DNA of 64,000 bases from Thermacetogenium phaeum DSM 12270 (GTDB lineage: Bacteria > Bacillota > DSM-12270 > Thermacetogeniales > Thermacetogeniaceae). Made by a program: the position numbers and the translations under genes. Location of the stretch: NCBI RefSeq assembly GCF_000305935.1, contig NC_018870.1, positions 637,942 to 701,941 on the forward strand, given 5' to 3'. The first letter of the stretch is position 1. Each line of letters starts with the position of its first letter. Of this stretch, positions 40,723-43,343 are shown one piece after another. The notes beneath the pieces are model-generated. The model was not told where the DNA came from. It searched no databases and worked only from the letters and a program-made list of their open reading frames with translations.

Positions 40723-40792
40723 CCAACCCCTGTTATTCGAATGAGTTATGAAACCGGCATGTTCTTCTGAGAAGGAAATGGGAGGGAGAGTT

Positions 40793-41932
40793 GTGCGAGC
40801 TCAAGGGATAAGGGTGATTGCCTGCCTGCTGGTGGGGGCCGCCCTGGTCTTCAGCTCGGTTGCACCGGGTCGAGCGGCTGATTCAGATCTTCTCCAGAAG
40901 AAGAAGGAGCTGGAGGAGGTCAACCGCCAGCTCGAGCTGCGGAAGCAGCAGCTGGAAAGGAACAAAAAAGAACGGAATGCCGTCCTTGAGGAGCTGAGCC
41001 AGATCGATCGGGATATTAGCGAAACGACCCGCGATCTGGAAAGAATTGAGCAAGAACTCAAATTGCTGGAAGAGAACATTCAAGAAACGGAAGAGCAGCT
41101 TAAAGAGAAAGAAGCCGACCTTCAAGAGCGGACGGAATATCTCCACAAGCGCCTGCAGGATATCTATATGGAGGGGAACGTTTCCTTTCTGGAGGTTCTG
41201 CTGGAGAGTACCAGTATGAGCGATTTCGTGACGCGCTTCGACTTCTTGACGCGAATCGCCGAGCAGGATTCCAGGCTGGTCAGGGAGCTGGCCGCGGAGC
41301 GCGACCGGATCGAACAGCGCAAAAAAGAACTGATGACGAAAAAAGAAGAGGTCGCCGTTTTAAGGCAGACGATTCTGGCCAAAAGGGAGTACCTGGCGGC
41401 GCGCAGCGCAGACCGGAAGGCGGTGCTGTCCTCTCTGAACACGGAGAGAGAAGCCTACCTGCGGGCGGTTCAGGAACTGGAGGAATCCTCCCGTCGCCTG
41501 ACCCAGCTTATTCAGCAGATGCAGAGCGGCGGACAGCCCCGGCAGGGGACGGGGCGCTTCATCTGGCCTGCTGCCGGGCCGATCACCTCCAGTTATGGGA
41601 TGCGCTACCATCCCATTCTCCATGAGTACAGAATGCATACCGGGATAGACATCGGTGCCCCTCACGGCGCTGCCGTCAAGGCCGCAGATGACGGGACCGT
41701 TATCTACGCCGGCTGGATGGGCGGCTACGGCCAGGTTGTGGTCATCGACCACGGAGGAGGCTATTCCACCTTATACGCGCACCTTTCCAGTATCCTGGTG
41801 GGCAAAGGCGACGGGGTGAACCAGGGCCAGACCATCGGACGGGTCGGCAGCACCGGCTGGAGTACGGGACCCCACCTGCATTTCGAAGTGCGTGTGAACG
41901 GGAATCCCCAGAACCCCTTGAGTTATCTGTGA
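40793..41932 (+). CDS. EnvC-like murein hydrolase activator, M23 (LytM) domain
   Basis: A 379-residue exported protein: a signal peptide (residues about 5-28, ending GRA-AD), a long coiled coil (about 30-245) and a C-terminal M23 peptidase domain with the zinc motifs HTGIDIGAPH (about 290) and HLHFEV (about 365). The coiled coil plus LytM layout matches EnvC, which is activated by FtsEX to cut septal peptidoglycan. The GTG at 40793 is chosen for a GGGAGGGAG site and a good signal peptide; the frame is open upstream to 40748. It ends exactly where a TnpB element begins, but the protein is intact. Confidence 0.9.
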   Translation: MRAQGIRVIACLLVGAALVFSSVAPGRAADSDLLQKKKELEEVNRQLELRKQQLERNKKERNAVLEELSQIDRDISETTRDLERIEQELKLLEENIQETEEQLKEKEADLQERTEYLHKRLQDIYMEGNVSFLEVLLESTSMSDFVTRFDFLTRIAEQDSRLVRELAAERDRIEQRKKELMTKKEEVAVLRQTILAKREYLAARSADRKAVLSSLNTEREAYLRAVQELEESSRRLTQLIQQMQSGGQPRQGTGRFIWPAAGPITSSYGMRYHPILHEYRMHTGIDIGAPHGAAVKAADDGTVIYAGWMGGYGQVVVIDHGGGYSTLYAHLSSILVGKGDGVNQGQTIGRVGSTGWSTGPHLHFEVRVNGNPQNPLSYL

Positions 41933-42069
41933 CATCCTCCCCTCAATGAATTGAGGGGCATCCTCAAGCGCGGGATGGCAGCTTTCGCCGCAGGTTAGCC
42001 AGCATTCTCCGGATGATCCGGATCATCACCTTGGCCTTAAGGGGTGTCACACTCCCCTTTCTCGCAGGG
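41933..42069 (-). ncRNA. Candidate omega-RNA region (TnpB right end)
   Basis: In TnpB elements the guide scaffold is made from the 3' end of tnpB through the right end of the element. On the minus strand this stretch contains a GGGGAGTGTGACACCCC-like hairpin, a GCGGCGAAAGCTGC-like hairpin and the terminal TTGAGGGG stem. Ends are not determined; positional inference. Confidence 0.4.
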
Positions 42070-43205
42070 TCATGCCCCGAGAGCATCGAGCGCTCTAGCG
42101 GCTATGTTTATAGCTCCAACTCTGTCCGCATCAGACTGGTAGCCGCATTTCGTGCATTTGAACCAGCCCTGCTTCTTCCGATTGTAGCGGGAAACATTCC
42201 CGCACTTGGGGCATGTTTTGGAAGTCTCCTTGGGATCGACGTAGATTACGGGCACGCCTTGAAGCGCAGCTTTATACTCGATGAACGAGGCCAGCTCCCG
42301 GAAGTTCCAGCCCGACATCATCCGGTTGAACTTCTTGGATCCTTTGGTCCGTTCCCGGATGCCCAGCAGGTTTTCCAATGCAATCGCCTTGCTTTCAGCT
42401 TTCGCGATCTCGACAATACGCCTGGAAATACAGTGGTTGATATACCGCATCCATCTTCGTTCACGACCTGCTTCTTTCTTGACACGGGACAGTCTCCCTA
42501 CCTGCTGGAGCGCTTTCCGCCGTTCTGCCCAACGCTCTTTTCGCCACCTTATCTGGCGGCCATCAAAGAAGATGTTGTTGGACAGCACAGCCAGTTTGAC
42601 GATGCCGAAATCGACCCCAATAATGCCGCCCGGCTCCTTATAGGATGTTTTATAAACCAGTGATTTTTATAAACCAGTGATATTGAAACGTACCATTCAC
42701 CACTCTCCCTCTGCCATATCTCCATAGACCCCTGTCGACAGGAACCTCCTGCCAGGTCTTGGAGCCTTCTGGCGTGGTACTCGGAAGCAGCAAGAGGCAT
42801 GGTTATCTGGCTTCTGCCGGAGGAGACGGGAAACTTGATAACCCATGTTCCCGATGGTAGCTGGTGAAGAGAGTAGCAGTCCTGCCGCACCATTACCGGA
42901 ATTGTTTTCTCAAACTTAGGTGGTCCGGCCTTTTTGCCCCTGCGCTTGTGGGAAAGATAGGAGCGCTTGGCGGATAACGCTTTGAGCATGGCGCACTGGA
43001 GCGTGCCCCGATTAAGGTCGAAGAGGTCACGCGCTTGCTGGTAGGTTTCCCGGTTTAACCGGGTACGGCTGGTAGTATTGAGAATTTCTGCTTGTTCCAG
43101 AAACCAGGCACATGCTTGCCTGTAGGTTTCTAGCATTCGGCTCATTTTCTCCAGTTTGCCTTTGTTGGGCTTAAGGAGCTTGACTCTTAGAGTTACCGTC
43201 TGCAT
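42070..43205 (-). pseudogene. TnpB nuclease, broken by a 17-bp tandem duplication
   Basis: Two minus-strand frames make one RNA-guided TnpB. The first half (43205 to about 42650) is the N-terminal wedge/REC part. The second (about 42650-42070) has the RuvC core: Asp in IIGVDFGIVKLAVLSNN, Glu in AIALENLLGIRE, a zinc finger (CPKCG and CTKCGY) and Asp in QSDADRVGAINIA. They are out of phase because an exact 17-base unit is present twice at 42648-42681. Removing one copy restores VYKTSYKEPGGIIGVDFG and an otherwise complete protein of about 375 residues. Loss of function looks recent. Confidence 0.9.
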
Positions 43206-43343
43206 TTGGGCCTCTCCTCCGGTTTGCTTAGACTATAGCACAACCGGAAGTATAAACCAAGCCGCCATTCATCCCTTGATTGAAATCAGGGGCATTCTGG
43301 CAGGAAATTTGTAAATATTGAAAAGCTTATTGAAACCGGGAGC

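What the first reader, a model, noticed from the sequence alone, without database searches (positions are those of the whole stretch)
42648..42681. TnpB inactivated by an exact 17-bp tandem duplication
TTTTATAAACCAGTGAT occurs twice in direct succession. Deleting one unit restores one continuous TnpB frame with complete RuvC residues. Because the repeat is exact, the event is recent and reversible by slippage or recombination, so a subpopulation could carry the active form (phase-variation-like).
Basis: seen in the sequence. Interest (0 to 1): 0.6.

Follow-up and report, generated by a model that had tools for sequence, protein, structure and literature searches.

The report
Decayed TnpB transposon, shared frameshifting duplication
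The 17-base duplication is real and breaks a transposon's RNA-guided nuclease gene, but all three full copies of the transposon in this genome carry it, so it marks an ordinary decayed mobile element rather than a fresh, flickering on/off switch.

Summary
The exact tandem TTTTATAAACCAGTGAT x2 at 42648-42681 is real and not chance. It sits just upstream of the RuvC-I motif of a minus-strand tnpB and splits it into two frames. The gene lies in a 1,382-bp IS200/IS605-superfamily, IS1341-like element (tnpB only) at 41929-43310, inserted 3' of TTTAC. The genome is Thermacetogenium phaeum (2,939,057 bp, matching CP003732).

The genome holds three full-length copies at different TTTAC sites, about 1% apart, and every one has both units; none has one unit. 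One copy has a further 1-bp frameshifting deletion. Related elements in other genera have one unit and mostly an intact 372-aa frame. The lesion therefore arose before the copies multiplied, or was spread between them by recombination. It has persisted while about 20 other differences accumulated.

The element's ends are intact. Other elements in the genome supply intact TnpA with the same target and the same terminal bases, so mobilisation in trans of a dead-TnpB element is the best explanation. Fervidicola shows a second case: two copies sharing one frameshifting deletion. Phase variation has no support but cannot be excluded without reads. Ordinary; low interest.

The parts
42648..42664 (.). 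first 17-bp unit TTTTATAAACCAGTGAT
   Evidence: TRF; sequence; homologous single unit in relatives
42665..42681 (.). second, identical 17-bp unit
   Evidence: TRF; sequence
42549..43205 (-). 5' fragment of tnpB (218 aa; first ~179 aa homologous, rest out of frame after the duplication)
   Evidence: ORF; NCBIfam guided_TnpB 2-183/389, below cut-off (E 9e-4, 18.6 bits against 100); alignment
42070..42666 (-). 3' fragment of tnpB, open -1 frame with RuvC motifs and zinc ribbon; first ATG/GTG/TTG start is GTG at 42588, downstream of the RuvC-I Asp
   Evidence: Pfam Cas12f1-like_TNB; NCBIfam guided_TnpB over cut-off
41929..43310 (-). whole element, 1,382 bp, tnpB only (IS1341-like), borders set by comparing three copies with different flanks
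43311..43315 (-). target site TTTAC abutting the left end (same pentamer at all three full copies and the left-end fragment)
43273..43292 (-). left-end subterminal hairpin (CCCCTGATTTCAATCAAGGG)
   Evidence: sequence
41939..41958 (-). right-end subterminal hairpin (CCCCTCAATTCATTGAGGGG), covarying in relatives
41929..42080 (-). putative omegaRNA (reRNA) scaffold at the 3' end of tnpB and right end; strongly conserved, structured
   Evidence: alignment; 53 pairs, 10 with compensatory changes; sub-threshold Rfam HgcC match at 41920-42024 (26 bits, gathering 50)

Best explanation
A TnpB-only member of the IS200/IS605 superfamily (IS1341-like) in which a tandem duplication, probably by replication slippage, frameshifted tnpB just before RuvC-I, so no full TnpB is made. 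Transposition in this superfamily needs TnpA and the end hairpins, not TnpB. The dead-TnpB element was therefore most likely moved in trans by a resident TnpA and now stands at three TTTAC sites; alternatively recombination between copies spread the lesion. Shown: the duplication, three copies with different flanks, intact ends, single unit in relatives, intact tnpA genes elsewhere in the genome. Inferred: loss of nuclease activity, mobilisation in trans, slippage as origin, and the order duplication first, copies second.
For: The 17-mer occurs exactly six times in the genome, as three tandem pairs. Three full copies, 99% identical, share TTTAC|left end and ...GATGTCAC|right end but have unrelated flanks. 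Relatives in other genera lack the extra unit. The genome has two near-identical IS605-type elements with intact 137-140-aa TnpA frames, inserted after TTAC and ending in GTCAC, plus a third intact Y1 TnpA reading frame. Halanaerobium hydrogeniformans is a published parallel: one intact tnpA and many IS605 copies inferred to move in trans (PMC7290912). TnpB is dispensable for transposition (PMC8612924). Independent parallel: two Fervidicola copies at different sites share one complex frameshifting indel.
Against: Guide-like bases next to the hairpins differ between this element (GAATG/GGATG) and the TnpA-bearing ones (GAAAG/GGAAG), so recognition by that TnpA is unproven. SNPs among the three copies are mutually incompatible (element sites 184/274 against 299/386), so recombination has probably occurred and could have spread the lesion after transposition. 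The C-terminal half shows 1 nonsynonymous to 5 synonymous differences, odd for a pseudogene (p=0.017, post hoc, six changes).
Confidence: 0.8

Rival explanations
1. Phase-variable TnpB: the 17-bp tandem expands and contracts often enough that part of the population carries an active gene.
For: The repeat is exact and a one-unit state is what relatives with an intact frame have.
Against: Three of three full-length copies carry both units while differing by about 1% elsewhere, so switching fast on that time scale is unlikely; one copy has a second frameshift that contraction would not mend. Two units is a minimal array; known phase-variable tracts are usually longer arrays of short units (own knowledge).
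Confidence: 0.04
2. The duplication arose once in one copy and was spread to the others by gene conversion, not by transposition of an already broken element.
For: Incompatible SNP patterns among copies; dN/dS between copies 0.2-0.5, and 0.12 between the two Fervidicola copies that share a lesion despite 6.9% divergence, as if most divergence accumulated in working genes.
Against: No clear SNP-free conversion tract around the duplication (nearest SNPs 102 bp upstream and 44 bp downstream of the 34-bp array); it requires two conversions plus loss of all unconverted copies.
Confidence: 0.22
3. The two fragments are still made and work together (split TnpB), or a -1 frameshift yields the full protein.
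For: Both frames stay open in the window copy and in one other copy; the C-terminal half shows few nonsynonymous changes.
Against: The only ATG/GTG/TTG starts for the C-terminal frame lie after the RuvC-I Asp; no canonical slippery heptamer in the short overlap (by eye); one copy has an extra frameshift in the N-terminal part.
Confidence: 0.03
4. Assembly artefact.
For: The copies are 1.4-kb repeats about 99% identical, where consensus can be copied between loci.
Against: Private SNPs of the copies lie within 44-106 bp of the tandem on either side, within one read length; published finished single-contig genome (PMC3551663).
Confidence: 0.03

Closest known systems
IS1341-type (tnpB-only) elements of the IS200/IS605 superfamily
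   Same: tnpB only, subterminal hairpins, fixed short target (TTTAC) at the left end, structured right end
   Different: tnpB broken by a 17-bp tandem duplication in every full-length copy of this genome
Decayed IS605 copies and PATE of Halanaerobium hydrogeniformans (PMC7290912)
   Same: multiple copies with decayed coding parts but intact ends, thought to be mobilised in trans by one intact TnpA
   Different: there mainly tnpA decay; here a tnpB frameshift shared by all full copies
ISDra2 TnpB (8h1j, 8exa) and AsCas12f1 (8j12)
   Same: homologous RuvC and zinc-ribbon part by sequence (using the intact relative L029); the protein name AsCas12f1 for 8j12 is from own knowledge
   Different: those are full-length nucleases; this one is frameshifted

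Membership tests
IS200/IS605 superfamily, IS1341 group | tnpB gene (RuvC + zinc ribbon) | tested here: met
   NCBIfam guided_TnpB over cut-off for the C-terminal fragment and for the intact relative L029; Pfam PF07282
IS200/IS605 superfamily, IS1341 group | no tnpA within the element | tested here: met
   borders 41929-43310 hold only tnpB; Y1 hits lie elsewhere in the genome
IS200/IS605 superfamily, IS1341 group | subterminal hairpins and insertion 3' of a short fixed target, no target duplication | tested here: met
   three copies after TTTAC with hairpins at both ends and unrelated flanks; TTTAC is not repeated at the right end
IS200/IS605 superfamily, IS1341 group | mobilisation by a Y1 TnpA in trans | not testable with these tools
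   candidate intact TnpAs present with the same target and terminal GTCAC; no assay
Functional TnpB RNA-guided nuclease | single continuous ORF joining the N-terminal part and the RuvC domain | tested here: not met
   frame broken in all three full copies
Functional TnpB RNA-guided nuclease | omegaRNA scaffold at the 3' end with guide beyond the right end | tested here: inconclusive
   conserved, partly covarying structure, weak HgcC match; expression unknown
Phase-variable gene | both repeat states present in copies or population | tested here: not met
   all three copies of the genome are in the two-unit state; population reads not available

The most novel reading that the evidence does not exclude
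Frameshifted TnpBs that persist in several diverged copies (T. phaeum, and separately Fervidicola) are kept for a function, for example as a natural split or recoded RNA-guided protein whose C-terminal half is still under selection.
Probability: 0.03. Interest if true: 0.6.

Novelty: new member of a known kind. Interest (0 to 1): 0.17.

Why it matters
It corrects an attractive reading: an exact repeat need not be recent or switching if every copy in the genome has it. It also gives a small natural example bearing on whether IS200/IS605 elements need their own TnpB to spread; TnpB is thought to aid retention (discussed in PMC11870625), yet elements with the same broken tnpB stand at three sites.

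Tried and rejected
Plasmid collection: no similar DNA. Only one genome of the genus is held, so no sister strain could be compared; wider searches ('order', 'class') gave the same 20 genomes. Programmed frameshifting considered: no canonical heptamer seen by eye. Restart of the C-terminal half considered: an AAGGAG precedes an ATT codon before RuvC-I, where relatives have AACGAG or AATGAG, but ATT starts are rare and nothing further supports it. Conversion tract around the duplication: not distinguishable from chance. Selection counts are too few to conclude. No structure prediction was run: homology by sequence was enough. A literature search for slippage rates of such repeats found nothing useful, so no switching rate is claimed.

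Full report
Observation. The two exact 17-bp units lie at 42648-42664 and 42665-42681. They are the strongest tandem array of the window; in 60 Markov simulations no exact tandem with a unit above 10 bp arose. On the minus strand they interrupt tnpB: 42549-43205 is the 5' fragment, and a -1 frame open from 42666 to 42070 is the 3' fragment. Relatives show a 17-column gap at this point and, where intact, a 372-aa frame, so the two-unit state is derived and frame-breaking. The 3' fragment scores over the guided_TnpB cut-off and carries the RuvC motifs and zinc ribbon.

Genome. The window lies in a single 2,939,057-bp contig. This is the published size of the Thermacetogenium phaeum chromosome, CP003732 (PMC3551663). 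The identification rests on that exact length.

Element. Comparing three copies with different flanks fixes the borders at 41929-43310 (1,382 bp), 3' of TTTAC, ending GATGTCAC, with a hairpin at each end and no tnpA. It is an IS1341-like, tnpB-only element of the IS200/IS605 superfamily. Its right end with the 3' end of tnpB is conserved across genera and folds with some covariation, as expected of an omegaRNA scaffold; Rfam gives only a sub-threshold HgcC match.

Copies in the genome. The 17-mer occurs six times, as three tandem pairs, all in full-length copies of this element. The copies differ at about 20 sites; one also lacks a single base in the 5' fragment. Two truncated copies at 1782065 and 2203425 lack the region of the duplication. 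There is no one-unit copy. TnpBs of other lineages in the genome have long open frames.

Relatives. In eleven related loci of other genera that cover the site (L026-L033, L036, L037, L041) the site has one unit. Most full-length ones have an open 372-aa frame. Two Fervidicola ferrireducens copies at different sites, 6.9% apart, share one complex indel (net -31 nt) that breaks the frame, while another copy there is intact: a second case of a shared tnpB lesion.

How it most likely works. TnpB is dispensable for transposition (PMC8612924), and elements with intact ends are thought to move in trans (PMC7290912). T. phaeum has two near-identical IS605-type elements with intact TnpA, which insert after TTAC and end in GTCAC like this one, plus another intact Y1 frame. 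So a slippage duplication that killed tnpB need not stop the element from spreading. Mobilisation in trans is inferred: bases next to the hairpins differ between the two element types. The copies also appear to recombine (incompatible SNPs), so spread of the lesion by gene conversion is a serious rival. In either case the event is not private to this copy and not demonstrably recent.

Selection. Coding differences among the three copies are 7 nonsynonymous and 8 synonymous; by halves 6:3 (5' part) and 1:5 (3' part). The last is lower than neutral expectation (p=0.017, post hoc). dN/dS between copies is 0.2-0.5 against about 0.15 among working relatives, and 0.12 for the Fervidicola pair. With so few changes this fits either relaxed constraint with some divergence predating the lesion, or chance. 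A functional split protein is not supported: the 3' frame has no ATG, GTG or TTG start before the RuvC-I aspartate.

Phase variation. Three of three copies in the same state after about 1% divergence, and a second lesion in one of them, argue against frequent switching. Only reads could exclude a rare single-unit class.

Verdict. Observation confirmed; interpretation partly supported; an ordinary decayed mobile element with a modest evolutionary point.

Noticed in passing
41929-41932 (and 43311-43316): The element inserted at the stop codon of the M23-type peptidase gene (40748-41932): the joined flanks imply CTG TAA before insertion, and the element's end now supplies CTG TGA, leaving the protein unchanged.
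   Followed up: partly
L032 and L037 (Fervidicola ferrireducens): Two tnpB copies at different sites, 6.9% apart with low dN/dS (0.12), share one complex frameshifting indel, suggesting lesion spread by recombination or co-mobilisation.
   Followed up: partly
L010 (genome 1782065-1782765): Internal-deletion copy joins the left end directly to the 3' half of tnpB, creating ATG GCC GTG CTG...: a new start for a RuvC fragment lacking the first catalytic Asp; its right end is truncated.
   Followed up: partly
41920-42024 (-): Sub-threshold match to Rfam HgcC (RF00062, E 0.0015, full model length) over the right end, hinting that this Rfam family may be related to omegaRNAs of TnpB elements.
   Followed up: no
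L013 (genome 2313472-2313747): Remnant of a related element: right end (GAGGACGTCAC) plus a short TnpB C-terminal piece; similar right-end matches occur in two genomes of the same family.
   Followed up: no
window 4461, 5981, 60940: Other exact tandem duplications with 11-12-bp units, more than the zero seen in 60 simulations.
   Followed up: no
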